From Haloglycomyces albus DSM 45210 (GTDB lineage: Bacteria; Actinomycetota; Actinomycetes; Mycobacteriales; Micromonosporaceae): a stretch of DNA of 64,000 nucleotides. A program made the position numbers and the translations under genes. The stretch is taken from contig NZ_AZUQ01000001.1 of the NCBI RefSeq assembly GCF_000527155.1, positions 1,482,554-1,546,553 of the forward strand, written 5' to 3'. Shown here piece by piece: positions 14,865-40,251 of this stretch. Within the stretch, counting starts at the first letter, position 1; each line of letters begins with the position of its first letter. The notes under the pieces were generated by a model, which saw only the letters and a program-made list of their open reading frames with translations, was not told where the DNA came from and did no database searches.

Positions 14865-16033
14865 TGGCGTCCTCCCTAGGTGCGTTCTGCGGTGCTTGAT
14901 AGGTCAGGTGGCCGCTGGGTGCGTCCCGTCGTCGCGCGTTGCGCTTCGCGGTTACGCTCCAGCACCTGATCGGTCTCGGTCGCGTTCATGGACACGCCGT
15001 CTTAAACCCTAAGTGGCGGCGTCCTCCCGTCGCCCTGCGGGCCAGAGGCATCCTGGAATGTCGCCCTGGCTCGGGCCCGTTAAACACGCCCTAACAGTAC
15101 ATGTTACCGGCTAGTAATTTCCATTCTGTGCCGAGGTCGGGTTCGGTTTGTTGCCGCTTTGCGACATGAGGGGACATCATGGCTACGGCGGCGTTCGCGA
15201 GTGAGGCTCCCGAACGACTGGGTAACGGCCATGACCTGCGTCTCTCCGGGGTGGTCCAGGCTACGTCCGTTGTGGAATGGTAACGAAGATGGTATGGAAT
15301 CGAAATATAACCCTCCGACAGTGGGTATTCATAGCTATCCATGCAAGCGCCTGATTGGATGATATTAACACTCCAACATTCAGATTGAATTTTTCTGAAA
15401 ACGGTTGAATAACAAGTATTCTGATGTCCGAAATATGGGGTTTTGTCCTGAAATAATTGCTTCGTCTGTACGTTTATGAGAGAAGAACCGAACTAATGGA
15501 CGCCCCTGGTGAAATCATTGAACGTTCGTCATGCTGGAATTAGCAGGGTTCACCGCTATCCGATCAAGGATCAATGTCGTACGACCGCACCTAGCGGTGC
15601 CGAACGGACTTGTCTCTCATGACCGGGTAGCAGGACTTGAAGCGCGACGCAGCGGCGTTCGCGCTGGACAGTAACTGGATTCGATCCAGGTGCCTCGAAT
15701 GTGGCAGGAAAGGAACCGTCGTGGCCGATGGCCGGGTACGGGCCGAGACCGACATGCCGAGGCTCTTGGGGCGGACCCAGAGGACACCTGCTCGGCGAAC
15801 CGGTGGCCCCGCGCTCTGCCGTCAGCAGAGGACCGGCACTTCGTCAGATCCAGTGCCCCTTTCAGTAGCCCATGAGCACGCCCGCGTCGAGCAAAGACGA
15901 ATACGGCTCATTCGGTGCCCGGTGATTCACGCCTGGGCCCGAATCGCGGACGGTCCAACAGCGTCTATGCGCGGTGGGCCGCTACAGCGTATGGACTGCT
16001 CAATTGAAGATGACCGCCCAGGAGGCAGCAAAG
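14865..16033. other. 1.2-kb gene-free stretch between divergent operons
   Basis: No credible gene is seen. It must hold the promoters of the Fe-S gene (leftward) and the conservon (rightward). An AT-rich part lies at about 15360-15500, unlike the surroundings. An open frame covering 15637-16041 has skewed composition and no family resemblance. No known riboswitch was recognised in the leader. Confidence 0.5.
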
Positions 16034-19000
16034 GTGAGTAAACGCAGCTCAAGTCGTAAGGCTTCAGCGGTGAAGCGAGGAGCGTTGGGCTTCCCGCGTA
16101 TCTCGGATATGAGAATCAGGTCCAAACTGGGTCTGATCCTCCTGATCCCATTGATCGTCCTGCTCGCGGTCGCATCGCTCCGTCTCTATGATCTGACCGA
16201 TCGGGCCTTCGATGCCGACGACATGGTCAACCTGGTGGAATTCAACGACATTACCGCTGAACTTCGTTTCAACCTCCAGCGTGAACGTTCTGAACTCGTC
16301 ACCTTCCTGCGCCGTGACTCCGACTACGTCGAAGGTCTCGACCCGGACGACTACACCGAAGAGTCGATGCGGAAACTGATGGCCGCCTCAGACGAATCCT
16401 TCGACGACTTCGTCCAGGCCGGACAGAATCTGCCCCTCGACAACGACGAGATCGACCGCCGTATCACTCTGGTCGCCGATACGCGCGAGAGCTTGAAACG
16501 CATTCGTGACAATGCTTTGGAAGACCCCGAGACTTCATCGATCGCCTCGACGTCGCGTGTATATCAGAACATGATCGGATCGCTGGTGACGATCACCGAC
16601 GTTTCCGCCCGTGTCGTGACCGACCCGGAAATCGCCCGTCAATTCCAGGTTATGGCCGCCGTGACCGAACTTCTGGAACAGACCGAGGAAGAACGCGCCA
16701 TCGCCGTCAGCGTCGGAAACGGTAAGACGTTCTTCAACAACGGTCGCGCCCGTGACTTCGCCTTCCGCGCCAATCAACGTGAAAAGGCGCAAGAGGACTT
16801 CCAGAGTCTGTCCAACCGTGACGAACAGCAGTCGTTCTACTTCGGCAGTGGCGGATTGGAAACCAATGAGGTCCAGCTGGCCACCGAATTCGAGGACGAG
16901 ACCAAGGCCGCCAACTCCGACACTCCCTTGGACGTCTCGGCCGAACTATTGGCCTCGTACGACGCCCTTCTCGAGGGTGGCGCCGGATTCATCGACGAGG
17001 TCAGTACGGAGACGTTGTCGGACGCGCAAAGTGAACGTGAAGCTCAGATCTTCCAGTTGTTGCTGGAAACCATCGTTATTCTGGTGGCCCTGATCGTGGC
17101 GACGCTGGTTGCCCTGGTCATCGCCCGCAACATGGCCAACGGGCTGAAGCGTCTGCGTGAAGGTGCGCTGGACGTGGCCCACGTTAGCCTGCCGCGCGCG
17201 GTGGCGGAGATGCGTGATCAAGACGCTCTGGGATCGCGCACTCCCGATGAAGTCGCCGCCGACGCCGGCAAGGCGATCGAGATCGACCAGCGCGACGAGA
17301 TCGGTAACGTGGCGCAGGCCTTTAACATCGTCCACACCGAGGCGATCCGAATTTCCGCCGAACAGTCGGCGCTGCGTGCCAACGTCGCGACCATGTTCGT
17401 CAACCTGGCGCGGCGTTCGCAGGGTCTGGTCGACCGTCTGATCGGGCACCTGGACGAATTGGAACGCGGTGAGGAAGACCCGGACCGCCTGTCCGAGCTG
17501 TTCAAGCTCGACCACTTGGCGACCCGAATGAGGCGTAACGACGAGAACCTGCTGGTTCTGGCCGGTGCGGACTCGTCGCGTCAGGAACGCCACCCGGCTC
17601 AGGTCGGCGACATTCTGCAGGCCGCTCAGTCCGAGGTCGAGCACTACACTCGCATCGAGTTCGGTCAGATTCAGACCGACCGCGACGTCAAACCGGCAGC
17701 GGTCAACGACGTGGTTCACCTGGTCGCCGAGTTGATGGATAACGCGACCTCCTTCTCGCCGCCGGAATCGGGCGTCCTGTCCGAGGCCGTGCAGTTGAAG
17801 GTCAACCATCCCGAACCCGGCGACGGCATCCGTATCCGCATTATCGACAGCGGTATCGGAATGTCGGACGCACAGATCAACGAGATCAACGAGCAGCTGT
17901 CGCACGACACCAGCTCGGTGGACATTACGACCTCCCGCATGATGGGTCTGGTCGTGGTGGCGCGACTGGCGCAGCGTCACGGTATTCGGGCCGAACTGCA
18001 CGCCGGGGCGGAACGCGGCATCATCGCCGAAATCATTCTGCCCGAGTCGGTCCTGACCGAGCCGAAGTTGAACCGTCGTCCCGCCGACAACACGGCCAAT
18101 ATTCCGTCGATTCCCGACAGCCCGGAGGGCATGTTCGGTACGTCGCAGCCGGCGCCCATGTCGCCGCCGATGCCGAACGGCCAGGCCGATCCGCTGAACG
18201 GTTCCGCGCCGTCGATTCCGTCGCAGCGTGAACCGGCGCCACCGCCTCAGCCGGCCGGGGACGGCGGATTGATGTTCCGTCCCGGTGGCTTCTCGGAGCC
18301 CACTCCGGCGGAGGAACAGCGTCCCATGGAAGTCACCGGGGAGATCGTTCACTCGGAGAACGTGGCGCTGCCGAAGATCCAGCTGGAAGCGGCTCCGCAA
18401 CCGGAGCCGCCGTCGTGGATGGATACCGCCAACACCGGTGGTACGGCTCAGCCTCAGGAGAACTCGGGCCGCATTTCCGCCTTGGACGAAACCACCGAGC
18501 TCCCGATCTACCGGGAGGCGGAGTCGGCCTGGTTCAAGGCCACCACTCCGCCACCGCAACCGGCGACGGACGCCGCCCCCAAGGGTGAGCCCGAGTCCGT
18601 TCCCGGGGGTTCCGGCTCGGTGACTCCTTCCGATACAGTCGAAAGCGACGCTTCGATTTCAACCTCGGATGGGAACACTATGTCAGAGCAACGGAGTGCT
18701 GACGCCGGAAGTCAGACCGGTTCACCGGAATCGGCCGCGGCGACGAGCGGAACTACTCCGGCTGCGGAATCCGCGAGTGAACCCCAAGGGGCGCAAGAGG
18801 ATGCGTACCGTCGTCGGCTGGGAAGTTCTTCACCTGCGGACTCGACAAACGGTGAGGAATCCGCTTATTCTTGGCGGACGGCAGCTGACAGCGCGTGGGA
18901 ACGCGTCGATTCCGCCTTGGGTAGTGAGGAAACGGATACCACCGCGAACGGATTGCCCAAGCGTCGTCCCGGCGCCAAGCTGTTGCCGGGTGGCGTTACC

Positions 19001-19108
19001 GAACCACAAGAGACTGTCAGTGCCCAGAAACGAAACCCCGAAGGCATCCGGGGCTTGCTGAGCGCCTATCACCGAGGGGTTCAGCGTGGCCGAGGCAGTG
19101 ACAACTAG
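16034..19108 (+). CDS. Conservon sensor histidine kinase (CvnA type)
   Basis: 1024 residues. First membrane segment at about 35-52 and a second at about 340-363 enclose an extracellular helical sensor region of the nitrate/nitrite-sensing type. A HAMP-like linker, a dimerisation helix with FKLDHLATRMRRND and an ATPase domain (LMDNATSFSPP, DSGIGM) follow. From about residue 690 a long Pro/Ser/Glu-rich disordered tail carries the short motifs ESAWF and GLPKRxPxAxLLPG. The start is GTG 16034, with AGGAGG eight bases upstream; the frame extends 20 codons further without a ribosome site. First gene of a four-gene conservon with roadblock, DUF742 and GTPase partners. Confidence 0.93.
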   Translation: MSKRSSSRKASAVKRGALGFPRISDMRIRSKLGLILLIPLIVLLAVASLRLYDLTDRAFDADDMVNLVEFNDITAELRFNLQRERSELVTFLRRDSDYVEGLDPDDYTEESMRKLMAASDESFDDFVQAGQNLPLDNDEIDRRITLVADTRESLKRIRDNALEDPETSSIASTSRVYQNMIGSLVTITDVSARVVTDPEIARQFQVMAAVTELLEQTEEERAIAVSVGNGKTFFNNGRARDFAFRANQREKAQEDFQSLSNRDEQQSFYFGSGGLETNEVQLATEFEDETKAANSDTPLDVSAELLASYDALLEGGAGFIDEVSTETLSDAQSEREAQIFQLLLETIVILVALIVATLVALVIARNMANGLKRLREGALDVAHVSLPRAVAEMRDQDALGSRTPDEVAADAGKAIEIDQRDEIGNVAQAFNIVHTEAIRISAEQSALRANVATMFVNLARRSQGLVDRLIGHLDELERGEEDPDRLSELFKLDHLATRMRRNDENLLVLAGADSSRQERHPAQVGDILQAAQSEVEHYTRIEFGQIQTDRDVKPAAVNDVVHLVAELMDNATSFSPPESGVLSEAVQLKVNHPEPGDGIRIRIIDSGIGMSDAQINEINEQLSHDTSSVDITTSRMMGLVVVARLAQRHGIRAELHAGAERGIIAEIILPESVLTEPKLNRRPADNTANIPSIPDSPEGMFGTSQPAPMSPPMPNGQADPLNGSAPSIPSQREPAPPPQPAGDGGLMFRPGGFSEPTPAEEQRPMEVTGEIVHSENVALPKIQLEAAPQPEPPSWMDTANTGGTAQPQENSGRISALDETTELPIYREAESAWFKATTPPPQPATDAAPKGEPESVPGGSGSVTPSDTVESDASISTSDGNTMSEQRSADAGSQTGSPESAAATSGTTPAAESASEPQGAQEDAYRRRLGSSSPADSTNGEESAYSWRTAADSAWERVDSALGSEETDTTANGLPKRRPGAKLLPGGVTEPQETVSAQKRNPEGIRGLLSAYHRGVQRGRGSDN

Positions 19109-19133: not shown

Positions 19134-19529
19134 ATGAGTACTGCTGGAACGACTCCCCAGGACTTGGGGTGGCTGCTGGCCGGCTTCGCTGAGCGCGTCC
19201 CTGGCGTCGCGCACGCCGTGGCCGTGTCGGCGGACGGACTCCTGTTGGCCTCGTCTCGTGACCTACCCCGGGACCGAGCCGACCAATTGTCCGCTGTGAC
19301 ATCAGGTTTGGTGTCACTCACTCAAGGTGCGTCACGGTGCTTCGAAGGCGGTTCGGTACTTCAGACGGTCGTGGAGATGGATCACGGCTTCCTCTTCTTG
19401 ATGTCCATTAGCGACGGTTCGTCCTTCGCTGTGCTGGCATCCAAGAATTGCGACGTAGGTCAGGTGGGTTATGAAATGGCCCTCCTGGTCGACCGTGTCG
19501 GACAGGCATTGACGCCCAACCGGCGTTGA
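19134..19529 (+). CDS. Roadblock/LC7 domain protein (CvnB type)
   Basis: 131 residues forming one roadblock/LC7 domain. The typical segment [21 protein letters not shown] lies early in the fold. In conservons this protein binds the sensor kinase and the small GTPase at the membrane and probably acts as a GTPase-activating or scaffold unit. It lies 25 bp after the CvnA gene. A paralogue is encoded at 34988-35437. Confidence 0.93.
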
Positions 19530-19696
19530 TCGATTACTCTCAGGTCGCAGTGTCGGGACCAGCTCGAGGGTCAAACGCACACGTTTGATACAAATTAGCT
19601 AACACGTTAATAGGTTTTTTTCAAAATCAACGGACTGCGCGTCCCATTGGAGCCCTCTTAAAGCGGGAATCCGTGAGGCAGCGGTTGGAGGTAAAC

Positions 19697-20077
19697 ATGG
19701 TCTTCGGTGGTGGAGAGGAGCCGACTGGCTCGCTCGTGCGGCCTTATGCGGTGACTCGCGGCCGAACACGACCGCAACTTGAAATCGCTCTGGAAGCGCT
19801 GATCGAAACGACCATGCGTGGTCGTTCCGGTGAATTTCTGGGTGGAAGAGAACAGCAAGCGATCGCTCACCTATGTGGGGGAGGTTTGCAGTCGCTCGCC
19901 GAAATCGCCGCCCGGATGGAAGTGCCCATCGGTGTTGCCCGCGTGCTCGTCGCCGATATGGCCGCAAACGGCCTGTTGGCAGTGCACGAACCGACTGCTA
20001 TCTCTGACGACACTTCCGACGATACCGTCGGTACCGACCTTCTTGAGCGCGTGCTCTCTGGACTCAGGAGGCTTTAG
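19697..20077 (+). CDS. DUF742 protein (CvnC type)
   Basis: 126 residues with the DUF742 pattern: SLVRPYAVTRGRT near the N-terminus, then a winged-helix-like region (SLAEIAARMEVPIGVARVLVADM). I take ATG 19697, because GGAGG lies six bases upstream; the frame is open to GTG 19673. It is third in the conservon, after a 167-bp spacer that is AT-rich around 19600. Role in the complex is not established. Confidence 0.92.
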   Translation: MVFGGGEEPTGSLVRPYAVTRGRTRPQLEIALEALIETTMRGRSGEFLGGREQQAIAHLCGGGLQSLAEIAARMEVPIGVARVLVADMAANGLLAVHEPTAISDDTSDDTVGTDLLERVLSGLRRL

Positions 20078-20083
20078 AACTTA

Positions 20084-20668
20084 ATGAACGCTCCCGCGAA
20101 TAATGCTCGCGTCACCAGTGCCAAGATCGTGGTCGCCGGCGGGTTCGGTGTCGGTAAGACGACCCTTGTCGGGTCGGTCTCCGAGATCACCCCACTGACC
20201 ACCGAGGCCATTATGACGTCAGCGTCAGAAGGGGTTGACAACAACAACCTCGTGCCGGACAAGGGCACCACGACCGTTGCGATGGACTTTGGGCGTATCA
20301 CCATCGACTCCGAACTGATTCTGTATCTGTTCGGTACTCCCGGACAGAACCGGTTCTGGTTCATGTGGGACGAATTGGTACGCGGTGCCATCGGTGCGGT
20401 GGTACTGGTCGACACTCGCCGATTGGCCGACTGCTTCTCGGTCGTCGACTTCTTCGAACACCGCAAATTGCCCTATGTGGTGGCCGTGAACTGCTTTGAC
20501 GGCAAGCAACTGCACGATCTTGAAGATATTCGTGACGCCCTTCAGGTGTCGTCGGACGTCCCGATCATGTACACCGACGCGCGCAACAGGGAATCCACGA
20601 AACAGGTTCTGATCAAACTGGTCGAGTACGTCTTGACCATGCGTCGCACGCAAACGGTCGGTGTCTAA
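20084..20668 (+). CDS. Conservon small GTP/ATP-binding protein (CvnD type)
   Basis: 194 residues, Ras-like P-loop protein. Walker A is GGFGVGKTTLV at about residue 25, the switch region includes TTVAMDFG at about 64, and GTPGQ at about 85-89 replaces the DxxG motif. The guanine specificity motif appears as AVNCFD rather than NKxD, as usual in this family. It ends the conservon operon, six bases after the DUF742 stop, and is followed by a terminator. MglA-like in fold; it acts as the switch of the complex. Confidence 0.93.
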   Translation: MNAPANNARVTSAKIVVAGGFGVGKTTLVGSVSEITPLTTEAIMTSASEGVDNNNLVPDKGTTTVAMDFGRITIDSELILYLFGTPGQNRFWFMWDELVRGAIGAVVLVDTRRLADCFSVVDFFEHRKLPYVVAVNCFDGKQLHDLEDIRDALQVSSDVPIMYTDARNRESTKQVLIKLVEYVLTMRRTQTVGV

Positions 20669-27815: not shown

Positions 27816-28040
27816 GCGTAGATTGTCGGATGATCCCACGCATGAGTCAATAGGAATATAGGAAAATATTGAATTAACATTCGGGCAAGTCGAGTCGCCG
27901 AAGTGACACGGGACGTTGACATGCCGATATTGTCAAGGGGAAAAGTGAGGGGCGCAAGAAGATGCAGGTGTATAAGACGTAAATATACCTAGTTGTCGCC
28001 AACCTGACAATCGTGTGTCCGATGTGTGCCACCGACACTC

Positions 28041-29396: not shown

Positions 29397-29483
29397 GGCT
29401 CGATTGTTTCGCACTCCACAGTCCACGGCAAACCGGGTGCGAAGCGACTGCGGACCTCACGTCAGCCTCGACGATCGCAGTGG

Positions 29484-31229
29484 TCAGTTCAGAGTGAAAC
29501 TCTCGAGCGCGGCGTCGAAGGTCTGCTGGGAAACGTCGGCGTGTTTTTCGGCCCCCGAGACGTATACGCCCCACGTGAACCCGTTCGGTCCATAGGCGAG
29601 CGCGAACCACGAGTGGTATTCGACGCCGTCGTCGCCGGTGTTGGTGTATTCGACGAGGTGGCCGTCGTAGCCGGAGATGTCGACCGCTTCGGATGTGACG
29701 ATCTCGCCGCCGTAGTTGTTGGCCAGCTGGGTCAGGTGTGTTTCGGGGTCTTGGTCCTGTAGCTGGTAGGAGTTGTTGTAGTAACGGGCCCAGTGGCTGT
29801 CGTCCTCCGGGTTGACGAAGACGTTGTAGTCGTCGCCGTCGGGGCCCTGTTGCCAGTCGGCCGGGTGGTCGGCGCTGTAGCCTTCTCCGTCGAATGTGGC
29901 GGTTTCGAGGCTCGGTTTCTCCTCGCCGTCGGTGAGTTCGTCTTCGCTGGGCGGTTCTTCGTCGGGGCCCGCGTTCGATTCGTCGGAGGCCGTTTCGGAG
30001 TCGTTCGACGAATCGTCGCCGTCCTGGGTCCACAGGTATCCGAGGAACCCCAGCCCCCCGATGACGAGTACGAGGACGCCGATGATGGCGACGACCTTCC
30101 CGCTGTTGGATTTGGATTCGCGTTCCGGCCGTTCGCTCGGTTCGCGCCGGGCGGTCGGTCGGGGTGGTTCGGGGTCGTCGTTTCGGTTGTCGTTGGAGGC
30201 GGCGGGGTGGACGCCGCTGTTGAGGATGGGGGAGTTGGTGCTTTCGGAGAACGGCCCGGACAGAAGCGCGCTGAGTTCGTGGCGTGCTTCGTTGAGGGTG
30301 ATGCGTTGCTGGGGGTCTTTCTTCAGCATCGCGCCGAGCAGTGGGGTGAGTGCTCCCGCGTTGAGGGGGCTTTCGGGGGGTTCGTTGACGACGGCCCGCA
30401 TGGTGGAGATGACGTCGCCGCGGTGGAACGGGGGCCGTCCTTCGCAGGCGGCGTAGAGCGAGACGCCGAGGCTGAAGACGTCGCTTCCCGGTTCGGCCTT
30501 TCCGCCGACGGCTCGTTCGGGTGCGATGTAGTGGGCGGAGCCGAGTACTTTGCCGGGGGCGGTGCCGCCGGAGAGGGAATGCTGTTGGGCGGCTCCGAAG
30601 TCGGTGAGGATGCATCGCCCGTCGGCGGTGATCAGGACGTTGCCGGGTTTGATGTCGCGGTGAATGATTCCGGCTTCGTGGGCGGCCTGGAGTGCGCCGG
30701 TCAGTGCGAGTCCGATCTTGCAGACGACGCGGAGCGGCAGCGGACCGTCGCTTTCGAGGATTTCGGCCAGTGAGCGTGCCTGGAGTAGTTCCATGACGAT
30801 CCAGGGGCGTCCGCCGTCTTGGACGACGTCGAAGACGCGGATAACACTGGGATGGGAGATTCCGGCGGTGATCTGCGCTTCGCGCATTGACCGTTCGATG
30901 AGTTGCTGTTGCTCGTCGGCGGAGATTTCCTTGGGGAGCGTGACGGCCTTGACGGCTACGTCGCGTTGCAGCGTGGTGTCGAGCCCTTGCCAGACGGAGC
31001 CGTTACCGCCGCGTCCGATGAGGTTGGTGAGTTGGTAGCGGCCGCCGATGTGGTCGCCGATTTGGGGCTCGCGCTGTTCCGGGATGGGCTGGTTACCTAT
31101 GCCTGAGTTTGTCGTTACATTCGGTGATGATTGATTCCATGAGGCGGTTTGGAATCGGTTTCCAAAGGCGCCCGATGGTTGCTGTCCTTCGGGCATGGCC
31201 GGACCGTTTGGGTCGTTAAAGTACGACAT
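29484..31229 (-). CDS. Transmembrane Ser/Thr protein kinase (PknB-like)
   Basis: 581 residues. Kinase domain at about 65-325: glycine loop IGRGGNGSVW, Lys in VAVKAV, catalytic loop HRDIKPGN, DFG and a SAHYIAPE activation segment. A basic and proline-rich juxtamembrane part leads to one membrane segment at about 385-405 (VVAIIGVLVLVIGGLGFLGYLW region). The external C-terminal part begins with an acidic linker and ends in a domain of about 130 residues without PASTA repeats, unrecognised. The protein also has a disordered N-terminal 60 residues, unusual for PknB. Start ATG with AGGAAAT. Divergent from the mutase gene. Confidence 0.92.
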   Translation of the reverse strand: MSYFNDPNGPAMPEGQQPSGAFGNRFQTASWNQSSPNVTTNSGIGNQPIPEQREPQIGDHIGGRYQLTNLIGRGGNGSVWQGLDTTLQRDVAVKAVTLPKEISADEQQQLIERSMREAQITAGISHPSVIRVFDVVQDGGRPWIVMELLQARSLAEILESDGPLPLRVVCKIGLALTGALQAAHEAGIIHRDIKPGNVLITADGRCILTDFGAAQQHSLSGGTAPGKVLGSAHYIAPERAVGGKAEPGSDVFSLGVSLYAACEGRPPFHRGDVISTMRAVVNEPPESPLNAGALTPLLGAMLKKDPQQRITLNEARHELSALLSGPFSESTNSPILNSGVHPAASNDNRNDDPEPPRPTARREPSERPERESKSNSGKVVAIIGVLVLVIGGLGFLGYLWTQDGDDSSNDSETASDESNAGPDEEPPSEDELTDGEEKPSLETATFDGEGYSADHPADWQQGPDGDDYNVFVNPEDDSHWARYYNNSYQLQDQDPETHLTQLANNYGGEIVTSEAVDISGYDGHLVEYTNTGDDGVEYHSWFALAYGPNGFTWGVYVSGAEKHADVSQQTFDAALESFTLN

Positions 31230-31332
31230 ATTTCCTATAACTCCTCACCACACCAGCATAAGATGTGGTTTTTTACCGCCTGAGGCAGCCGCCACTCACA
31301 CTGTACGGTCATGTGTCTATAAGATCAAGAAT

Positions 31333-32904
31333 ATGGATCGAGACGTACAAGGTCGTACAGGGGTTCCGATCGAACCGCTCTATGAATCATATAAGCGAGA
31401 ACCAGAGCTGGGTAAACCCGGTTCCTTTCCCTACACACGCGGTGCGTACCCCACGATGTACACCACCAAACCGTGGACGATGAGACAGTACGCGGGCTTC
31501 GCGACCGCTTCCGAATCGAACCAACGCTACCGGGAACTGTTGGCCAACGGTTCGACGGGGTTGTCGGTCGCGTTCGACCTGCCCACCCAGATGGGTTATG
31601 ACTCCGACGCCGCGATCGCGGCCGGTGAGGTCGGCAAGGTGGGGGTCGCCATCGATTCGATCGACGACATGCGCATCCTGTTCAACGAGATCCCTCTCGA
31701 TCAGGTCTCCACCTCCATGACCATCAACGCCCCCGCCTCCGTCCTACTGCTTCTCTACCAGCTGGTCGCCGAGGAACAGGGCGTCTCCGGCGATCAACTT
31801 CGCGGCACGATTCAAAACGACGTGCTCAAGGAATACATCGCGCGCGGCACCTACATCTTTCCCCCGGAGCCGTCGCTGCGTCTGATATCCGATACCTTCG
31901 CCTACTGCTCGGCGGAAATGCCGCAGTGGAACACGATCTCCATCTCCGGCTACCACATGGCCGAAGCCGGTGCCGACGCCGGACAGGAACTCGGATTCAC
32001 CCTCGCCAACGGCATACAATACGTTCAAGCCGCCATCGACGCGGGCCTGGACATCGACACCATCGCCCCGCGCCTGTCGTTCTTCTTCGTGGCGCGCTCG
32101 TCGATCCTCACCGAAGTCGCGAAGTTCCGCGCCGCCCGGCGCCTGTGGGCCCACGTCATGCGCGACCGCTTCGGGACCGACAACCCCAAGAGTCAACGGC
32201 TGCGCTTCCACACGCAAACGGCCGGAGTGGAACTGACCGCGCAACAACCCGAGATCAACCTCTCGCGCGTCACCATTCAAGCGCTCGCGGCCGTCATGGG
32301 CGGCACACAATCGCTGCACACCAACAGCTTTGACGAAGCGCTCGCGCTGCCCACCGACAAGAGCGCCCGGCTTGCCCTGCGCACCCAGCAGGTTATCGCC
32401 AACGAAACCGACCTGACCGACACCGTCGACCCCTTCGCCGGATCGTATGCGGTCGAAAGCCTCACCGACGAGATCGAGGCGCAGGCCACCGAGCTCATCG
32501 ACGCCGTCTTCGCACACGGGTCGGCGGTCAAGGCGATCGAACAGGGCTTCCAGAAAACCGAGATCGAACGCACCGCTTACGCTACGGCCCAACGGATCGA
32601 CGCTGAGGAACAGGTTATTGTAGGGGTCAACAAATACCGAACCGAGGACGAAGAGCCTTACACGCCACTGCGAGTCGATCCCGAACAGGAAGCCTCACAG
32701 GTTAAGTCGGTTCAAGCGACCAGAAACGACCGCGACAACGACGTCGTGGCCGATAAGTTGGCGGCCTTGAAATCGGCCGCCGGTACGGACGACAACATCC
32801 TCTATCCGATGAAGGAGGCCCTGGCGGCGAAGGCGACCGTCGGGGAGGTCAGCGGTGCGCTGGCCGAGGTATGGGGCCGTTACGTCCCGCCGGAAACGTT
32901 CTAG
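31333..32904 (+). CDS. Methylmalonyl-CoA mutase large (catalytic) subunit, no B12 domain
   Basis: 523 residues, catalytic TIM-barrel only; the cobalamin-binding domain must be encoded elsewhere. YPTMY at the substrate tyrosine position, WTMRQYAGF, and IARGTYIFPPEP carry the tyrosine and arginine expected for methylmalonyl-CoA rather than isobutyryl-CoA (inference from family knowledge). LRFHTQTAGVELTAQQP is the typical barrel signature. Interconverts succinyl-CoA and methylmalonyl-CoA. Start ATG 31333; the frame is open further upstream, but those residues have no family match. It stands alone; divergent from the kinase gene. Confidence 0.85.
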   Translation: MDRDVQGRTGVPIEPLYESYKREPELGKPGSFPYTRGAYPTMYTTKPWTMRQYAGFATASESNQRYRELLANGSTGLSVAFDLPTQMGYDSDAAIAAGEVGKVGVAIDSIDDMRILFNEIPLDQVSTSMTINAPASVLLLLYQLVAEEQGVSGDQLRGTIQNDVLKEYIARGTYIFPPEPSLRLISDTFAYCSAEMPQWNTISISGYHMAEAGADAGQELGFTLANGIQYVQAAIDAGLDIDTIAPRLSFFFVARSSILTEVAKFRAARRLWAHVMRDRFGTDNPKSQRLRFHTQTAGVELTAQQPEINLSRVTIQALAAVMGGTQSLHTNSFDEALALPTDKSARLALRTQQVIANETDLTDTVDPFAGSYAVESLTDEIEAQATELIDAVFAHGSAVKAIEQGFQKTEIERTAYATAQRIDAEEQVIVGVNKYRTEDEEPYTPLRVDPEQEASQVKSVQATRNDRDNDVVADKLAALKSAAGTDDNILYPMKEALAAKATVGEVSGALAEVWGRYVPPETF

Positions 32905-33227
32905 TCGCCGTCGCCGTCCAAGCGCCGCTGTACGCGGGGCATTGGACGGGCCGGTATAAAAGTGGGAAATAATCCGCTATAACTGTGGCAATCCGAGCAA
33001 GCATCGGTAATCCTTGACTACGGGTTGAATATCATTCGAATCTACTTGAGGACTCGAAACGATAAACCATACTGGGGACTTACACATCAGCCGCATGGCA
33101 ATGACGCTGCGGTCGGCACGGAACAACCCACCGATCGCACTGCGACGCGCACTGAACCGGCGTCTCCGGTCGGCAGACCGCCAAGGCAACAACGGCCCTG
33201 AACAACGCGATGGAAGGAAGACGATAC
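32905..33227. other. Gene-free leader, 320 bp
   Basis: No gene or known RNA recognised. It must contain the promoter of the IS110-like/roadblock operon. A ribosome-binding site GGAAGGAAG lies just before the GTG at 33228. Confidence 0.4.
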
Positions 33228-34991
33228 GTGGACGTCTTTTGCGGGATCACCACCGTGATGCAGGAAGACGAGGAAAACGCCTGCGCCATCGCGCTCGTCA
33301 ACTCCACCGGTACACTCCTCGCCTCCGACACCTTCGCCGACGATATACGCGGCTGGGTCCAATTCCTCCTCTTCACCCACCCCCACCGCAGATTCCCCAT
33401 CGCGGTAGGCGACGCCGAGACCCTCATCTCCGACCTCGCCCACACCACCGGGCACCACGTCACCGTCGCCGAAACCCCCGAAGCCGGTAAAGACGAGATC
33501 GACAAGGCCATCTGCCTCGCCCGCAGCATGGCCACCGGAGAAATCTCCCTCGGCACCGACAACCACCACCCCGCCTCCGGGCACCTCCGCCCGCTACTCG
33601 ACAGCCTCGCGCAGGCCTGCGACTGTCGTGAAGCCGCCGTCCAGACTCTCACCAGCCTGCTGCGCGCCGTGTTCCCGGCCGCGCTCGCCGCGTGGGACGA
33701 TCCCGGTGACCCGGGCGCCGTCGCCATACTGACGCGGATGCCGCAACCGGGTGCGCTGCAAAGTATCTCCACCGGAGACCTCGCCAACGACCTGGCGACC
33801 TTCGCCGATCCGGCACATATCGCGGCCTTGGCCACCGCACTCACCCAGTCGATCAAGGAAATCGGCGGAGGCGACGACTCGATGGCCGCGCCGTCGATTT
33901 CGGCCACCGCCGAAGCCGTGGCCTCCTGGGACCGGTCCATCGAAGGCCTGACCGCCCTCGTCCAAGCGCATCGATCGCAGAACAACCGGCAGATGCCCGC
34001 CGCTGCGCCTACGGTCCCCGAGCCCGTTGCCGAGGAAGAGGACTCCTCCGACGGGCTCAGCATTAAAATTCCCGACGACCTTCCCCCGCGCCGCAGTCTG
34101 CGTGCGCTCGACCCGGCGACGGGAGCGGCACCGATTGTGGAACGGGCCGCCGAAGCCGCCACCCAGGAGTTCACCTCACCGATCGCGGAGACGAACGACG
34201 AGACTCCTCCTCCCGCAGAAGCAGAAGAGGAAAAACCGATCTCCGACACCGAAGCGGCCACTCGAATCCTGGAGGCGCTCAACTCGGAGGAAGAAGGTCG
34301 GACGGACGAGGAACCCGACGGCGACTCCGAAGGGGACTCCACCTCCACGATGTCGCTGCGTCCCGGACGGGCACGGCGCTCGTTTCGGAGGCGAGCCGAG
34401 GAACCACGGGACGAACCGACCGAACCACTCGCAGCGGCCGCACCATCCGCGTCGGAGGAAAGCGGACCGCCACTGCCGCGACGCGAACGCGCGTCTCGCC
34501 ACGCCGAGCCGGAGCCGGAAGCTCCCCAAGCGGCCGAACCGGAGCCGGAACCGGTGCCCGAGCCGGAGGCGCCGACTCAACCCAACATCGCCGACCTGCC
34601 CATCTCCGACGGCGACGACGACGGTCTGATGATCTTCAGTCAGACGCGAAGCGCCTGGTTCCAACGCCCCGAAAGCAGTGAGACCCAAGAATGGTCGATG
34701 CCGTCCGATGAGGAATGGCGAGCGGCCGCCGAGGTCACTGAGGCACCGAAACAGAGTGATCAGACTTCTTCAGGGTTGCCGAAACGTGAACCACAGGCTA
34801 ACCTACTTCCTGGTTCGGTTCTGGCCGAGAAGGACGTACGCAGCAAAGCGCCCATCGAACGCGATGCGGATCTGTTGGCGAACAACACGTCAGGATACTT
34901 CCGTGGCTGGAGTCGCGCCCGCACCGCTGATCGGAACGCCGAATCAGTCCCCGCAAACGCCCAGACGGGCCATAGGATGGCACAACCATGA
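33228..34991 (+). CDS. IS110-transposase-like N-terminal domain fused to CvnA-type disordered tail
   Basis: 587 residues. Residues about 1-215 follow the order of an IS110 (DEDD) transposase N-terminal part: VFCGIT where the transposase has GID, AIALVNSTGTLLAS, LISDLAHTTGHHV, KDEIDKAICLARS at the DxxD position, and LLRAVFPAALAAW with ILTRMPQPGAL. The first catalytic Asp is Thr, and the C-terminal Ser domain of IS110 is absent. From about 250 a Pro/Glu-rich disordered tail ends with SAWF and GLPKRxPxAxLLPG, as in the conservon kinase at 16034. Start GTG 33228 after GGAAGGAAG. Its stop overlaps the roadblock gene (ATGA). I infer a domesticated, probably non-catalytic protein; the function is unknown. 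Confidence 0.7.
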   Translation: MDVFCGITTVMQEDEENACAIALVNSTGTLLASDTFADDIRGWVQFLLFTHPHRRFPIAVGDAETLISDLAHTTGHHVTVAETPEAGKDEIDKAICLARSMATGEISLGTDNHHPASGHLRPLLDSLAQACDCREAAVQTLTSLLRAVFPAALAAWDDPGDPGAVAILTRMPQPGALQSISTGDLANDLATFADPAHIAALATALTQSIKEIGGGDDSMAAPSISATAEAVASWDRSIEGLTALVQAHRSQNNRQMPAAAPTVPEPVAEEEDSSDGLSIKIPDDLPPRRSLRALDPATGAAPIVERAAEAATQEFTSPIAETNDETPPPAEAEEEKPISDTEAATRILEALNSEEEGRTDEEPDGDSEGDSTSTMSLRPGRARRSFRRRAEEPRDEPTEPLAAAAPSASEESGPPLPRRERASRHAEPEPEAPQAAEPEPEPVPEPEAPTQPNIADLPISDGDDDGLMIFSQTRSAWFQRPESSETQEWSMPSDEEWRAAAEVTEAPKQSDQTSSGLPKREPQANLLPGSVLAEKDVRSKAPIERDADLLANNTSGYFRGWSRARTADRNAESVPANAQTGHRMAQP

Positions 34992-35437
34992 GCGCAGACC
35001 TAGGAGTTTACGAACGTTCCCTGTCCATGCTGCTGGGTTCCCTGGTGGCCCGCACGCCCGGACTGTCACACGCTGTTTTGGTGAGTGTAGACGGAGTCGC
35101 ATTGGCGGTGTCCACCGGTCTGCCGCGTGACCGTGCCGACCAATTGGCGGGCATCGGTTCCGGTCTACTGTCCATGGGCGAAGGTACGGCCCGTGCCATG
35201 AGTCAGGGTCCCACGCAACAGGTCGTGGTCGAAATGGCCGAAGGCGTGCTGGTGTCGTCCCCGGTGAGCCCGCAGATCTGCTTGACGCTGTTGGCCGTTG
35301 CCGAATGCAACCGGGAACAGCTGGGGTATGAGATAGGACAGTTCACCATGCAGGTAGGCCCGCTCCTCGCGGAAGCCCTGCACAACACCGGATCCCATCC
35401 GGTTGTGGCGCAAGAAGCCGGCGGTTACAACGCCTGA
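34988..35437 (+). CDS. Roadblock/LC7 domain protein coupled to the IS110-like gene
   Basis: 149 residues, one roadblock/LC7 domain: [22 protein letters not shown] matches the CvnB protein at 19134 closely. Extra residues at the C-terminus (about 130-149) are not part of the fold. ATG overlaps the preceding TGA by ATGA, so it is translated in a fixed ratio with the IS110-like protein. No GTPase or DUF742 gene follows, so it is not a full conservon. It may dimerise with, or bind, the tail protein or the CvnD GTPase of the other locus. Confidence 0.9.
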   Translation: MSADLGVYERSLSMLLGSLVARTPGLSHAVLVSVDGVALAVSTGLPRDRADQLAGIGSGLLSMGEGTARAMSQGPTQQVVVEMAEGVLVSSPVSPQICLTLLAVAECNREQLGYEIGQFTMQVGPLLAEALHNTGSHPVVAQEAGGYNA

Positions 35438-35493
35438 TCACCAGACGCCTCGCGTCCTTTGCTGTTGTGTCGTAGATCGCATATCATAGGGGC

Positions 35494-37536
35494 ATGTTTC
35501 GCCGTGCCCTCCTGAACCTCGCCCTCATCGCGATCACCGGCCCCGCGATCGTGCTACTGACCGCCACCACCGCCAACGCACAGACCGACGACGAACCCCC
35601 GAAGCCACCCGACGTCGTCGTGTGCGACCCCGACGAAGACGAATTCCACGAACGCAACGACGAGATCGAATTCGGCATACGGATGGAGAACCGCGATCTC
35701 TTCAAACGATGCCTGGAAGCGGAAACCTTCGACCTCAGCGCGGCGGTCACCGAAGCCGACGACGGCACCTCCATCGCCGTCCTCCCCGGACACTACCCGG
35801 TCACCGAACCGCTGGAACTGACCGGAACCACCGATATAGAGCTCTACGGCAACGCCGCACAACCCGACGACATCGTCATCGAAGCCGACGACGACCTCGC
35901 CACCCTCCTCGCCGTCCGCGACTCCACGGCGACAACCCTGCGAATGCTGACCTTCCTCCACGGCAACGACAACGCCGTCGACATTCGCGACAGTGCCGAC
36001 GTCGACATCACCGCAGTCGTCGCCAAGAACAACGGACGCAACGGTTTCTTGCTGAACAACACCGACGAGATCACCATGACCAAAACCTCGGCGTCCGGAA
36101 ACGCCGCAGCCGGCCTCCACTGGAACGCCTCCAACGGCAGCGTCACCGCAGGAAAATACCAACACAACCGCCACGGCCTCCACCTCCGCGACAGCAGCGT
36201 CGACATCGAAACCGTCTCAGTGGGACGCAACCTCATCGGAACCTACCTCGACGAATCCACCACCGTACGAATCCAAGACGGCGACTGGTACGAAAACAAC
36301 CTCAACCCCCTGCGAGACAACGACTGCGACAAACCACTCTTCGAACGCTCCCCGTCCTCGGTACAGATGTGCCCGTCAGTCGGCTCCTCCAGCGGCATCG
36401 GACTATGGATACACGGCAGCACCGACGTCACCGTCACCGACAACCACTTCTGGGGCCACCGAGGAACCGCCGTCGTCGCCACCGGCGACGGCGTCAACAA
36501 CCAAGCCAACGACACCATCACCGTTCAAGGCAACCACTTCGGCGAACGCAAACAAGGAGGAAGCCAACACAACCACACCGACATCTGGTGGGATGGCCAA
36601 GGAGAATCCCTCTGCTTCGACGTCGACACCAGCGACGTCACCCGCCCGGCCGCACTCCCCGCCTGCGACGACGGCATCGGACCGGTCAACCGCTACCTCG
36701 GCGACCCCGTCTCCACCCTCAAAACCGAATACTGCGGACAACCCGACTACCAACAACCCCAGGACTACTGCGACTGGCTGGGAGCACCGGCCTCCGAACG
36801 CCTCGAATTCCGCGTCGCGCTCGCCGTCGCGGTGGGAATGTTCGTACTGACCGGCCTAGGCTGGCTGGCGGCGGCACGCGGAACGCGCCCACCCGGATTC
36901 AACTCGGCGGGAGTATCGACCCTGACCCTCGCGGCGGCAGTGTTCCTCACGGTGGCGGCGGCCTGGTCCAACCGTTCGGATTACGAGGCCCTGGCGTTGG
37001 TGATGTGGGCGGTCGCCTGGGTGATCGCCGCACGGGCCTGGCGAGTGAGTGGGCTGGCGGCGCTCGCCTGGTTGAGTTATATCGTGTCGTTCCTTTTGGT
37101 AGTGGACGCGACCGATCGCGCGGTATGGACGGTTCCGTACCTTCCGGTGTCACCCGGCTGGTTGTGGCTGGCGCTGTTGCCCGTCTGGTTCGTCGTCATG
37201 TTCTTTTACCTGGTTCGGAAACGTCCGACCGACCCCGACGACCAGCCACCACAACAGCGGCAAGAGGAAGAGATCGCCGAGTACAACCGTTTCCATTGGG
37301 GAGATTTCCACGGTCAACCTCGAACATTAGCGCGGGCGATAAGCGGTAAAGTGTCGGTATGGCTTGGACATGGAAGTTTGAAGACCCCGACGGAACCGCG
37401 ATCGAAATCGAGTCCGAAGAGCACGACAACCAGGGCGACGCCGAAACGTGGCTGGGCGATATATGGCGTGACCTACGCGAAAAAGGCGCTTCAGCAGCGG
37501 TTCTCTTCGACAAGGACACCGAAGTGTACCGAATGA
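35494..37536 (+). CDS. Secreted beta-helix protein with C-terminal membrane domain
   Basis: 680 residues. Signal peptide ends at TTANAQ (about 30). Residues about 70-380 are right-handed beta-helix-like, with repeated short Asn/Asp/Gly turns as in NosD or pectate-lyase-like proteins. At about 450-570 come five to six hydrophobic segments, then a charged cytoplasmic tail. The final about 60 residues read through the start of the small gene at 37359 in another frame and have low-complexity composition, so the native C-terminus may be shorter and the stop may have been lost. Start ATG with AGGGGC. Function not known. Confidence 0.75.
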   Translation: MFRRALLNLALIAITGPAIVLLTATTANAQTDDEPPKPPDVVVCDPDEDEFHERNDEIEFGIRMENRDLFKRCLEAETFDLSAAVTEADDGTSIAVLPGHYPVTEPLELTGTTDIELYGNAAQPDDIVIEADDDLATLLAVRDSTATTLRMLTFLHGNDNAVDIRDSADVDITAVVAKNNGRNGFLLNNTDEITMTKTSASGNAAAGLHWNASNGSVTAGKYQHNRHGLHLRDSSVDIETVSVGRNLIGTYLDESTTVRIQDGDWYENNLNPLRDNDCDKPLFERSPSSVQMCPSVGSSSGIGLWIHGSTDVTVTDNHFWGHRGTAVVATGDGVNNQANDTITVQGNHFGERKQGGSQHNHTDIWWDGQGESLCFDVDTSDVTRPAALPACDDGIGPVNRYLGDPVSTLKTEYCGQPDYQQPQDYCDWLGAPASERLEFRVALAVAVGMFVLTGLGWLAAARGTRPPGFNSAGVSTLTLAAAVFLTVAAAWSNRSDYEALALVMWAVAWVIAARAWRVSGLAALAWLSYIVSFLLVVDATDRAVWTVPYLPVSPGWLWLALLPVWFVVMFFYLVRKRPTDPDDQPPQQRQEEEIAEYNRFHWGDFHGQPRTLARAISGKVSVWLGHGSLKTPTEPRSKSSPKSTTTRATPKRGWAIYGVTYAKKALQQRFSSTRTPKCTE

Positions 37537-37559
37537 GTCTGGAAGACCCCAACGCGTAA
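37359..37559 (+). CDS. Small conserved actinobacterial protein
   Basis: 66 residues opening MAWTWKFEDPDG and containing GDAETWLGDIWRDL and a closing EVYRMSLED, a pattern I recall from many small actinobacterial hypothetical proteins. No function known. It overlaps the 3' end of the beta-helix gene by 178 bp in a different frame. No clear ribosome site is seen, and TAAAGT lies eight bases before the ATG, so a leaderless transcript is possible. A hairpin follows. Confidence 0.75.
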   Translation: MAWTWKFEDPDGTAIEIESEEHDNQGDAETWLGDIWRDLREKGASAAVLFDKDTEVYRMSLEDPNA

Positions 37560-37575
37560 GAATTCCACACGACAG

Positions 37576-37598
37576 GGGAGGTCACTCGGTGACCTCCC
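37576..37598. terminator. Hairpin between convergent genes
   Basis: Ten-bp perfect stem GGGAGGTCAC with three-base loop, between the small gene ending 37559 and the CBS gene ending 37612. No T-run on either side, so a terminator role is likely but not certain. Confidence 0.5.
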
Positions 37599-37611
37599 GA
37601 TAAAAACACTT

Positions 37612-38040
37612 CTAGTTGTTGGGTGGGGCGGCGTAAACGCGTTCCACAAACTCGGCCACCTCGTCTTCGCTCAAATGCTGCGCGATGTCGGCTTCTGAGA
37701 TCATGCCGACCAACTTGCGATTGTCCAGTACCGGAACGCGGCGAACGGAGTTGTCCTCCATCATCTGCAGGCAATCGTGTATTTCGGTTTCGGCCTCCAC
37801 CCAGATAAGTCGATCGTCGGCCAGTTGACCGGCCGTGACTGTATTGGGGTCGTGGCCTCCGGCAATGCATTTGACCACGATATCGCGATCGGTGATGATG
37901 CCGTGCAGTCGATTGTCATTGCCGCAAATGGGAAGTGCCCCGACATGGTCGTCGCGCATCCGTTGGGCGGCCTCGCTCAACGATTCATTGGCATCGACGC
38001 ACTCCGCGTTGTTGTGCATGATGTCGCGGGCGGTCATCAT
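37612..38040 (-). CDS. CBS-pair domain protein (Hrp1-like)
   Basis: 142 residues made of two CBS domains: the first spans RDIMHNNAECVDANESL to GIITDRDIVVKCI, the second WVEAETEIHDCLQMM to VGMISEADIAQHL. Such stand-alone CBS proteins bind adenine nucleotides; hypoxic response protein 1 of mycobacteria is the best known relative. Start ATG with GAGGAGG upstream. The protein is cytosolic. Single gene. Confidence 0.9.
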   Translation of the reverse strand: MMTARDIMHNNAECVDANESLSEAAQRMRDDHVGALPICGNDNRLHGIITDRDIVVKCIAGGHDPNTVTAGQLADDRLIWVEAETEIHDCLQMMEDNSVRRVPVLDNRKLVGMISEADIAQHLSEDEVAEFVERVYAAPPNN

Positions 38041-38528
38041 GGCTTCTTCCTCCTCATAACGTCCTCATTGCGGCTTATCGGACCGTTCCCGACGCCTGAA
38101 TGAGAAATATTCAACACTTCTTCTTGTCAGTGTGGCGGAAAAACGCCGATCAGAGGCCGGTTATAAAAAACCAACCATCGCGCTGGTCGTGTTGTCGCGT
38201 TTTGGCCGTTTCGAGGCCGACCTCCGCCGGTTCCGCGTCATAGTTCTGGGTGTGGTGGCCGACGGCGGTTTGACCATTGAACGGTCGCACGTATCGAGCG
38301 TCCTAGGGCGATTCGAGTTCGGTTAGGTGTTCAGGGGCAAGATGGGTGGCGGCAGGAAGGTTGACGTAGTCGTAACTATGTTCGATACGTCCGGGAATAC
38401 CTGCCCATTTGAGTTCGGGCGTACGGTTATCGCTGTTCAGCGACTTCCCCGCGTTCTCCGTGGTATTCGGCTTGTGTATGGGTGTCCCAGGTCCAGTGGT
38501 CATCGGTCTTATAGCAACCACTGACCGA
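38041..38528. other. 490-bp gene-free stretch at the edge of the accessory island
   Basis: Contains the CBS promoter region and the 3' side of the membrane protein gene. No gene recognised; base composition becomes more AT-rich from here to about 47.6 kb. Confidence 0.4.
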
Positions 38529-38921
38529 CTATCGACGTTCCCATGGAGGTAGAAGCCATCTGGGTTTTCCTTTGAGAATGAGGGTAAACATGGCAACGGT
38601 AGTTCCGACGAGCAGAATGATGAGGATAAGCAGAACTGCCGTCAATATCAAAAGCACCGCCCCATCGGAGAAGTCGGATTGGAGGACGATCGGAATGACG
38701 ATAAAGAGCATCAGGAGGTATATCGACAAGGTGGTCATCGGGGCATAACCGCGATACCAGTACCTGAGAGATCGACCGTACTTTTCCATCTGCCGTGACC
38801 GCCGGTGCAGCAGCTTCATGATTCGTGCGTTGCCGGTCCAGACCAGAATTCCTAGAACTGTGGTCGCGATCAGCGCTGCGATAAATATGGCACTTATGAT
38901 CATGCCAGTAGTACTATCCAT
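38529..38921 (-). CDS. Small membrane protein, three TM segments
   Basis: 130 residues, unrecognised. Hydrophobic segments at about 5-25, 63-82 and 88-112, with a basic loop (HRRSRQMEKYGRS) between the first and second and a basic C-terminus. Start ATG 38921 with AGGAA eight bases upstream; an open frame to 39152 has no support and overlaps the lipoprotein gene. Base use is less GC-rich than core genes here. Confidence 0.65.
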   Translation of the reverse strand: MDSTTGMIISAIFIAALIATTVLGILVWTGNARIMKLLHRRSRQMEKYGRSLRYWYRGYAPMTTLSIYLLMLFIVIPIVLQSDFSDGAVLLILTAVLLILIILLVGTTVAMFTLILKGKPRWLLPPWERR

Positions 38922-39097
38922 AGCAATATTCCTGTTAGGGGCGGGCATTCCGGGCGTCGGTGGTAAAACTACGGCGATATCGGAGTGTAGGTGATCGCCT
39001 GAACCACCAGATATTTGGATCATACGTCCGACTCTGATTACCCATCCGAGGTAGGTGGCTGCAGGCAAAGGGCTCCGCACACCGCATTGGTAATGGC

Positions 39098-39802
39098 CTA
39101 CTCGGCAGCGAAACGTTCGATCAAATCGTCGATGGATGAGACAGAGCCCCATGCATCACCGAGCTCATCATGAGAAACCCCTACTCCAGTTATGGTGTCG
39201 TCTGATTCGGCTTGAAACCACATCCAGCCCGGTCCCGATTGGTATATGGGTGCGTCTTCGGGGATATCGGCAGGGCGATTGATAGTTACATCGTCCAAGT
39301 CCGTATAGGGATCCCGTTGCGACGCTTCGACACCGGCCATGACAATACGAAGTCCAATTCCCGCGTCGTCCAGCGTGGTCATCGTTCCATGACCGTGAAG
39401 TGACTGGTACAGGTAAATCGATTCGGCCGAATCATTGAGTCCCATGAGGTTTTGATCGACTGTGACTTCCAATATGATCGATTCGGTCGGTGTTTGGAAG
39501 TCTTCTAGAGTCATGTCGTTGTCTTCTTGATATTCGGGGTCGTGGAACTTATCGTGGTCGAAGCTCAAACCCTCGTGGACTGCGATGATCGACCCCGAAA
39601 CAATCACGTCTGCAGTCTCGGCAGCATGTTCCGGCGACACCATCGGTTGGTAGTCGATGTCTTCTGACCCCGTGAGCTGCGAGGTGAAATCACGTGCCTT
39701 CGGGCTCGAATCTGCTTCCGCTGTGTCAGGTGCGCTGGTACAGGCGGTCAGCGTGATGGTGAGAAGGCTTGCGACGAGGGCGATGCTGTAGCGATTCACC
39801 AT
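39098..39802 (-). CDS. Lipoprotein, unknown function
   Basis: 234 residues. Signal peptide with lipobox ITLTAC (Cys at about 20), then an Asp/Ser linker and a soluble acidic domain. The segment ADVIVSGSIIAVHEG followed by strands with TESIILEVTVDQ suggests a small beta-barrel-like fold, but no family is recognised. Start ATG 39802 with GGAGG. Probably anchored on the outer face of the membrane. Confidence 0.72.
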   Translation of the reverse strand: MVNRYSIALVASLLTITLTACTSAPDTAEADSSPKARDFTSQLTGSEDIDYQPMVSPEHAAETADVIVSGSIIAVHEGLSFDHDKFHDPEYQEDNDMTLEDFQTPTESIILEVTVDQNLMGLNDSAESIYLYQSLHGHGTMTTLDDAGIGLRIVMAGVEASQRDPYTDLDDVTINRPADIPEDAPIYQSGPGWMWFQAESDDTITGVGVSHDELGDAWGSVSSIDDLIERFAAE

Positions 39803-40251
39803 TTGTCCTCCGTGTGCACGATAGGGGTTGCAGGTATGCCGACATCCATTGGAGATGTCAACGCCGTTGTGTACTTCTCGGCTAGCCAAATGCACACATC
39901 AACGTCGGGTAGGGTAGCCGCAATGTTGATACCGTGCCAACACTCGTGAATCGGCACGATACGAATTCACCCATGCTCACAATGGCCCACCGGCCGGAGT
40001 GTTTGACTCCCATTCCAGTAAGCGTTCGTCCTAGTTCGACGTCTTAAGATGTGATCCGGTTTCGTCGTCGAGTGTGTTACTGAAAGCGTGGCGCATAGCG
40101 CGGCAGCTCGACTTCACAGGGCGCAGTGAGCCCCAACGCCTCGCGGGTGATCTTTCAGCCCCGCCCTTAAGGAACATAGACAATTCCGTTGCGCCTCAAG
40201 GAGAACAGTATTATTGTTAATTGTCCTGTCAATGATAGGAAGGACAGAACG
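39803..40251. other. 450-bp gene-free stretch
   Basis: Between divergent lipoprotein and glycosidase genes; should hold both promoters. No other feature recognised. Confidence 0.4.

What the first reader, a model, noticed from the sequence alone, without database searches (positions are those of the whole stretch)
33228..35437. IS110-transposase-like protein apparently domesticated into a roadblock signalling module
The first 215 residues of the gene at 33228 follow an IS110 (DEDD) transposase from GIT (transposase GID) through the DxxD region to the LLRAVFPAALAAW and ILTRMPQPGAL segment. The C-terminal serine domain is missing and is replaced by a long disordered tail ending in the same short motifs as the CvnA kinase of the conservon. 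The gene overlaps a roadblock/LC7 gene by ATGA. This looks like a transposase fragment captured as a signalling or scaffold protein. I know of no described system with this pairing.
Basis: partly seen in the sequence, partly recalled or inferred. Interest (0 to 1): 0.78.

Follow-up and report, generated by a model that had tools for sequence, protein, structure and literature searches.

The report
Dead IS110 recombinase recruited by conservon
A bacterial "jumping gene" enzyme of the RNA-guided IS110 kind has lost its cutting residues, been fused to the docking tail of a signalling kinase, and been kept for a very long time next to a small-GTPase signalling operon in nearly every member of one actinobacterial family, where it probably serves as a protein scaffold.

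Summary
Residues 1-255 of the gene at 33228-34991 descend from an IS110 recombinase: the RuvC domain plus the following Nop-like helical domain. AlphaFold gives pLDDT 91, and the best PDB matches are IS621 and ISCro4. All four catalytic positions are changed in the window protein (T/G/E/K), and the first aspartate is lost in 57 of 57 relatives. The serine domain is absent and a disordered linker follows. The C-terminal motifs are homologous to the CvnA kinase tail (profile E 1.4e-14). The family is monophyletic and single-copy. It occurs in 60 of 61 genomes sampled from the window's GTDB family (Glycomyces, Micromonospora, Actinoplanes and others) and was not found outside it. It is under purifying selection and is usually convergent with one conserved conservon (57 of 62 loci). 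The ATGA-overlapping roadblock gene is ancestral but was lost in most genera, so the lasting partner is the conservon, not the pair. Best explanation: a domesticated, catalytically dead IS110 acting as a cytosolic scaffold or adaptor that competes with or replaces CvnA for the CvnB/roadblock–CvnD module. Domestication and dead catalysis are well supported; the scaffold mechanism is inferred. I found no published description.

The parts
33228..34991 (+). Domesticated IS110-like gene, 587 aa (GTG start, stop 34989-34991)
   Evidence: orthologues
33228..33569 (+). Residues 1-114: RuvC / RNase H-like domain of IS110 type, catalytic DEDD positions T/G/E/K
   Evidence: AF2; VIA-align Z 13.9 to IS621 8wt6; residues
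33570..33992 (+). Residues 115-255: helical, Nop-like domain of IS110 type; most constrained part, no longer basic
   Evidence: Nop5 3pla Z 9.0; omega 0.095 in Glycomyces; net charge
33993..34616 (+). Residues 256-463: disordered linker replacing the IS110 serine (Tnp) domain
   Evidence: pLDDT mostly <50; composition
34617..34988 (+). Residues 464-587: CvnA-type tail (IFxxxxSAWF, DxxWxxA, GLPxRxPxxxLxPG, GYFRGW)
34988..35437 (+). Roadblock/LC7 protein (CvnB/MglB-like), ATGA overlap with the gene above
15974..19108 (+). CvnA histidine-kinase-like protein of the conservon (NIT, HATPase); its C-terminal tail 18491-19105 is homologous to 34617-34988
19134..19529 (+). CvnB roadblock protein
19673..20077 (+). 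CvnC (DUF742)
20084..20668 (+). CvnD small GTPase

Best explanation
This is a domesticated IS110 recombinase that now works as a non-catalytic subunit of an actinobacterial G-protein system (conservon). Before the last common ancestor of Glycomyces/Stackebrandtia and Micromonosporaceae, the first two domains of an actinobacterial IS110 (RuvC and Nop-like helical) were joined through a disordered linker to the tail of a CvnA kinase, directly upstream of a CvnB-type roadblock gene. In effect a cvnA-cvnB pair had its membrane sensor and kinase replaced by a dead recombinase (shown: homology, gene order, loss of active site, vertical inheritance; inferred: order of events). The globular head is proposed to self-associate as a protein scaffold. 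The tail is proposed to dock the same partner that binds the CvnA tail, most simply the roadblock/GAP (its own where present, otherwise the neighbouring CvnB) and through it the GTPase CvnD. The protein would thus be a soluble adaptor or competitor that moves the GAP-GTPase module away from the membrane kinase and tunes CvnD (all inferred).
For: Fold: AF2 pLDDT 91.3, pTM 0.85 from an alignment without any IS110 row. Top PDB matches IS621 and ISCro4, Z 13.9, 2.2 A over 106 residues, ahead of SPT6/Tex (11.3) and RuvC (10.0). Family profile hits IS110 up to 5e-28. Catalytic D1 kept in 37 of 37 IS110s and 0 of 57 family members; no member keeps all four. Family monophyletic (UFBoot 100) beside GIDWA-type IS110s. 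Present in 58 of 61 genomes, then 60 of 61 with the profile; best score outside the family 100 bits against 241-345 inside. Purifying selection in Glycomyces: omega 0.31 RuvC, 0.095 helical, 0.31 tail, 0.45 linker. Head charge shifted negative, helical 115-215 median +5 in IS110 to -2 in the family, arguing for protein rather than nucleic-acid binding. Tail homologous to CvnA; outside this family the tail occurs on kinase ORFs. Convergent with the conservon in 57 of 62 loci. Outside the family, the roadblock's nearest relatives found (105-110 bits) include CvnBs lying directly behind tail-bearing CvnAs.
Against: No interaction or expression data. What the CvnA tail binds is unknown in the literature I read. 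Synteny could persist simply because the region is stable: an upstream neighbour without a Pfam match recurs too. In the window the gene is 12.5 kb from the conservon, and in five other loci with at least 5 kb downstream no CvnD is near. The roadblock partner was lost in most genera without loss of the gene. The roadblock is its own clade, not nested with the neighbouring CvnB, so a local duplication is not shown.
Confidence: 0.6

Rival explanations
1. The head still binds nucleic acid: a dead, RNA-guided or DNA-binding IS110/Nop protein that links the GTPase system to a chromosomal or RNA target, i.e. the missing output of the conservon.
For: The RuvC plus Nop-like architecture is complete up to residue 255 and the Nop-like part is the most conserved; IS110 and box C/D Nop proteins bind guide RNA there (PMC12045711); dead RuvC with Nop is a known working design in box C/D proteins.
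Against: The helical domain has lost its net positive charge (median +5 to -2; window -5) and the RuvC domain is strongly acidic; the C-terminal IS110 Tnp domain is missing; no Rfam match, no array.
Confidence: 0.15
2. Decoy only: the tail is the functional part, titrating the CvnA partner, and the IS110 head is just a stable folded cap.
For: The tail is strongly conserved across genera (mean column identity 56% against 46% for the N-domain).
Against: In Glycomyces the helical domain is under much stronger purifying selection than the tail (0.095 against 0.31), so the head has its own function.
Confidence: 0.15
3. Unrelated RNase H-like protein that resembles IS110 by convergence, or a decaying transposase remnant.
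For: Window protein has no Pfam hit; AF2 alone would also allow generic RuvC relatives.
Against: Profile-level sequence hits to IS110 at 5e-28 over residues 1-220, IS621/ISCro4 as top structures, tree beside IS110. Open frame in essentially all members, single copy, syntenic, purifying selection.
Confidence: 0.03

Closest known systems
IS110-family bridge-RNA recombinases (IS621, ISCro4; PF01548 + PF02371)
   Same: RuvC-like domain fold and the following helical Nop-like domain; sequence homology at profile level
   Different: No DEDD active site, no serine/Tnp domain, single-copy, inherited vertically in a fixed locus, no Rfam-known RNA or array found nearby
CvnA kinases of conservons (actinobacterial G-protein systems)
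   Same: C-terminal tail with the same four motifs in the same order, and a roadblock gene directly behind
   Different: No membrane, NIT, HAMP or HATPase domain; the N-terminal part is IS110-derived
Conservon accessory proteins CvnE (P450) and CvnF (GAF) (PMC13343842)
   Same: Extra, lineage-restricted protein associated with a conservon; CvnF8 binds and stimulates CvnA8
   Different: Different folds; usually encoded convergently rather than as fifth operon gene; here the neighbouring CvnA still has its NIT sensory domain, whereas CvnE/F accompany CvnAs without one
Box C/D Nop5/Nop56 and TasR with inactive RuvC (PMC12045711)
   Same: Inactive RuvC-like domain followed by a Nop-like helical domain (3pla Z 9.0); in Nop5 the dead RuvC recruits a protein partner
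   Different: No RNA partner or array found, head not basic, fused to a signalling tail

Membership tests
IS110 transposase/recombinase | RuvC-like fold of IS110 type | tested here: met
IS110 transposase/recombinase | Catalytic DEDD | tested here: not met
   window T/G/E/K; D1 in 0 of 57 family members, 37 of 37 IS110s
IS110 transposase/recombinase | C-terminal PF02371 domain with catalytic serine | tested here: not met
   no Pfam hit in the 587 aa; residues 256-587 disordered/tail
IS110 transposase/recombinase | Mobile, often multi-copy element | tested here: not met
   one family-level copy per genome, fixed neighbourhood
IS110 transposase/recombinase | Bridge RNA encoded in element ends | tested here: inconclusive
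   no Rfam match, but bridge RNAs may lack a model; no conserved RNA was searched for systematically
CvnA | Histidine-kinase core (HATPase) and sensor/membrane region | tested here: not met
   no Pfam hit, no hydrophobic stretch (max Kyte-Doolittle 19-mer 1.34)
CvnA | Four-motif C-terminal tail | tested here: met
CvnE/CvnF accessory proteins | P450 or GAF domain | tested here: not met
   no Pfam hit; fold is RuvC plus Nop-like
CvnE/CvnF accessory proteins | Modulates the cognate CvnA or GTPase | not testable with these tools
   needs biochemistry or genetics
CvnB/MglB roadblock (34988-35437) | Roadblock/LC7 domain | tested here: met
   PF03259 E 7e-17; own clade among CvnBs
TIGR-Tas | Adjacent array of tandem spacer repeats | tested here: not met
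   no tandem array in 28000-40000

The most novel reading that the evidence does not exclude
A whole family of bacteria has turned an RNA-guided recombinase into a permanent, catalytically dead subunit of a Ras-like GTPase signalling system by splicing it onto the partner-docking tail of the system's own histidine kinase, creating a cytosolic kinase-less version of CvnA.
Probability: 0.5. Interest if true: 0.85.

Novelty: new variant of a known kind. Interest (0 to 1): 0.72.

Why it matters
Domesticated transposases in bacteria are rarely traced this cleanly, and I found no report of a domesticated IS110 or of one serving signal transduction. How conservon kinases pass their signal to the GTPase is an open question in the field (PMC13343842). 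The shared tail, found on only two kinds of protein here, marks a likely docking site for that step and makes it directly testable. The protein is present in essentially every genome sampled from a large group of antibiotic-producing actinobacteria, yet the window's copy matches no curated family.

Tried and rejected
(1) Roadblock pair as the conserved unit: rejected; present in 25 of 80 loci and absent from 13 core genomes where a matched search found only CvnBs at about 101 bits or less against 210 or more for true orthologues. (2) Roadblock as a recent duplicate of the neighbouring CvnB: not supported; it forms its own clade, although the neighbour's CvnB is the best non-orthologous hit in many genomes. 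(3) Donor IS110 in the same genome: none; the only weak PF01548 hit (E 0.004) lies on an ORF that reads as a ROK-type sugar kinase. (4) Tail-bearing proteins without kinase elsewhere in Actinomycetes: none found in the hits checked; one 245-aa case is cut by a contig end. (5) PDB sequence search with the profile: no IS110 hit, three meaningless ones. (6) Rfam, tandem arrays, plasmid copies, defence-system models: nothing. (7) The helix at residues 340-353 in the linker model is window-specific, so I give it no weight.

Full report
WHAT IS THERE. The gene at 33228-34991 on the + strand encodes 587 aa from a GTG with a good Shine-Dalgarno site; its stop overlaps the start of a roadblock/LC7 gene (34988-35437) as ATGA. 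No Pfam or NCBIfam model matches the window protein, even at E 10 for the first 215 residues in Pfam. A conservon lies upstream on the same strand: CvnA 15974-19108 (NIT, HATPase), CvnB 19134-19529, CvnC/DUF742 19673-20077, CvnD 20084-20668.

IS110 ORIGIN. A search with residues 1-215 found one family-level copy in 58 of 61 genomes sampled across the window's taxonomic family, and in one of them, separately, a genuine IS110 transposase at E 3.7e-5 (L053 carries PF01548 and PF02371). Two orthologues hit PF01548 below cut-off (1.4e-4, 6.8e-4). A profile of 15 members (A1) finds genuine IS110s across the class at up to 5e-28 over positions 1-220. AlphaFold2 on residues 1-271 with 57 family rows and no IS110 row gave pLDDT 91.3, pTM 0.85. 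Foldseek's best solved structures are IS621 (8wt6, E 4.9e-4) and ISCro4 (9t56). VIA-align gives Z 13.9, rmsd 2.2 A, 106 residues for IS621 (model 1-114), against 11.3 for SPT6 and 10.0 for RuvC. Residues 112-252 match the coiled-coil/Nop region of Nop5/Nop56 (3pla Z 9.0; by itself a middling value for a helical domain). That agrees with the published finding that the IS110 RNA-binding domain is a Nop domain (PMC12045711). So the IS110-derived part is the RuvC plus the helical domain, ending about where the serine domain should begin.

CATALYTICALLY DEAD. In an alignment of 57 family members with 37 genuine IS110s, the first catalytic aspartate is D in 37/37 IS110s and 0/57 members; no member keeps all four (most common ADAR and TDAD); the window has T, G, E, K (the alignment at position 2 of the window is the least certain). 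PF02371 is absent. The helical domain's net charge (115-215) has shifted from a median of +5 to -2 (window -5), and the RuvC domain from -3 to -12.

TAIL. The last ~124 residues carry IFxxxxSAWF, DxxWxxA, GLPxRxPxxxLxPG and GYFxGW. The first two occur in 72/72 members with an intact tail, the third in 71 and the fourth in 68; matching patterns occur in the neighbouring CvnAs. The tail profile finds the window's CvnA at 5.3e-13; profile-profile E is 1.4e-14 over 74 columns. In other families of the class, the tail hits I checked lie on kinase ORFs (one at a contig end could not be judged). The linker is disordered (234 residues with pLDDT below 50).

CONSERVATION. With the profile, two of the three missing genomes are positive, so 60 of 61; the remaining one is in 780 contigs. 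In an order-wide sample, 42 genomes of the family score 241-345 bits and nothing outside exceeds 86; class-wide the best outside hit is 100 bits, a genuine IS110. Named hosts include Glycomyces, Candidatus Stackebrandtia, Longispora, Micromonospora, Actinoplanes, Asanoa, Phytohabitans and Virgisporangium. The tree puts the family as one clade (UFBoot 100, stem about 1 substitution/site) beside GIDWA-type actinobacterial IS110s; its first split is Glycomyces/Stackebrandtia against the rest. This indicates one domestication before that split, then vertical inheritance. Pairwise dN/dS in Glycomyces has medians 0.31 (RuvC), 0.095 (helical), 0.45 (linker), 0.31 (tail).

NEIGHBOURHOOD. Of 62 named loci with at least 5 kb downstream, 57 have CvnD of the conservon on the opposite strand within 6 kb, and all 66 loci with a CvnD show that convergent arrangement. 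The window is an exception: same strand and 12.5 kb apart. The roadblock gene is present in Glycomyces, Stackebrandtia, Longispora, Actinorhabdospora and Phytomonospora, on both sides of the tree's first split, so it is ancestral. It is absent from 13 of 17 genomes tested, where the best match is a CvnB at about 100 bits, while the four genomes chosen as positive controls score 210-256 bits. It forms its own clade. Outside the family its nearest relatives found (105-110 bits) include CvnBs lying directly behind tail-bearing CvnAs (compare coordinates). The gene pair therefore has the layout of a cvnA-cvnB pair whose sensor and kinase are replaced by an IS110 head.

HOW IT MOST LIKELY WORKS. 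Shown: IS110 descent, loss of catalytic residues, CvnA-type tail, linkage to one conservon, purifying selection strongest in the helical domain. Inferred: the head is a folded, probably self-associating protein module; the tail docks what the CvnA tail docks; the protein is a soluble adaptor or competitor acting on the roadblock GAP and the CvnD GTPase. GAP and GEF roles of CvnB and CvnC homologues are known from the Mfp system, and how CvnA passes on its signal is open (PMC13343842). The chief rival is that the head still binds RNA or DNA; the charge shift and the missing Tnp domain argue against it but do not exclude it.

KNOWN OR NEW. The described conservon accessory proteins are P450 (CvnE) and GAF (CvnF) proteins, which accompany CvnAs lacking a sensory domain (PMC13343842). 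Here the neighbouring CvnA has a NIT domain and the accessory is an IS110 derivative. That paper does not contain the word transposase, and my literature searches found no report of this family; the library covers open-licence papers only.

Noticed in passing
window 25491-26756 (-): An IS605 OrfB/TnpB-type gene (Cas12f1-like TNB E 1.4e-19, OrfB_IS605, HTH) lies between the conservon and the IS110-like gene; insertion or rearrangement here may explain why the two are 12.5 kb apart and co-directional in this genome.
   Followed up: no
G000:C1:783015-786188 (L243:3016-6188): A second CvnA-like protein (NIT, HATPase) followed by a roadblock gene, then cytochrome oxidase subunit I; no DUF742 or GTPase gene seen directly behind, and only a partial tail motif (NLPRRDPGSRLVPGS).
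   Followed up: partly
L116:5959-6918, L085:5624-6460, L109:5985-6947, L106:5939-6910: A conserved gene without Pfam match (two tested), ending ...WRxxIxKIxxxVDWR, sits directly upstream of the IS110-like gene in many genera but not in the window, where a methylmalonyl-CoA mutase gene (31195-32904) lies upstream instead.
   Followed up: partly
L118:6923-8567 and L141:6887-9741: In Actinoplanes sp. TFC3 and Phytohabitans flavus the gene is split into overlapping frames (N-domain ORF plus tail ORF); sequencing error or real frameshift not resolved.
   Followed up: no
L085-L105, about 60-120 bases upstream of the start codon: A strongly conserved non-coding stretch in Glycomyces (such as CTTGCGGATCAGAGTATTCTGCGGAAAACTGATAACGGACT), probably promoter or operator; not seen by eye in the window.
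   Followed up: no
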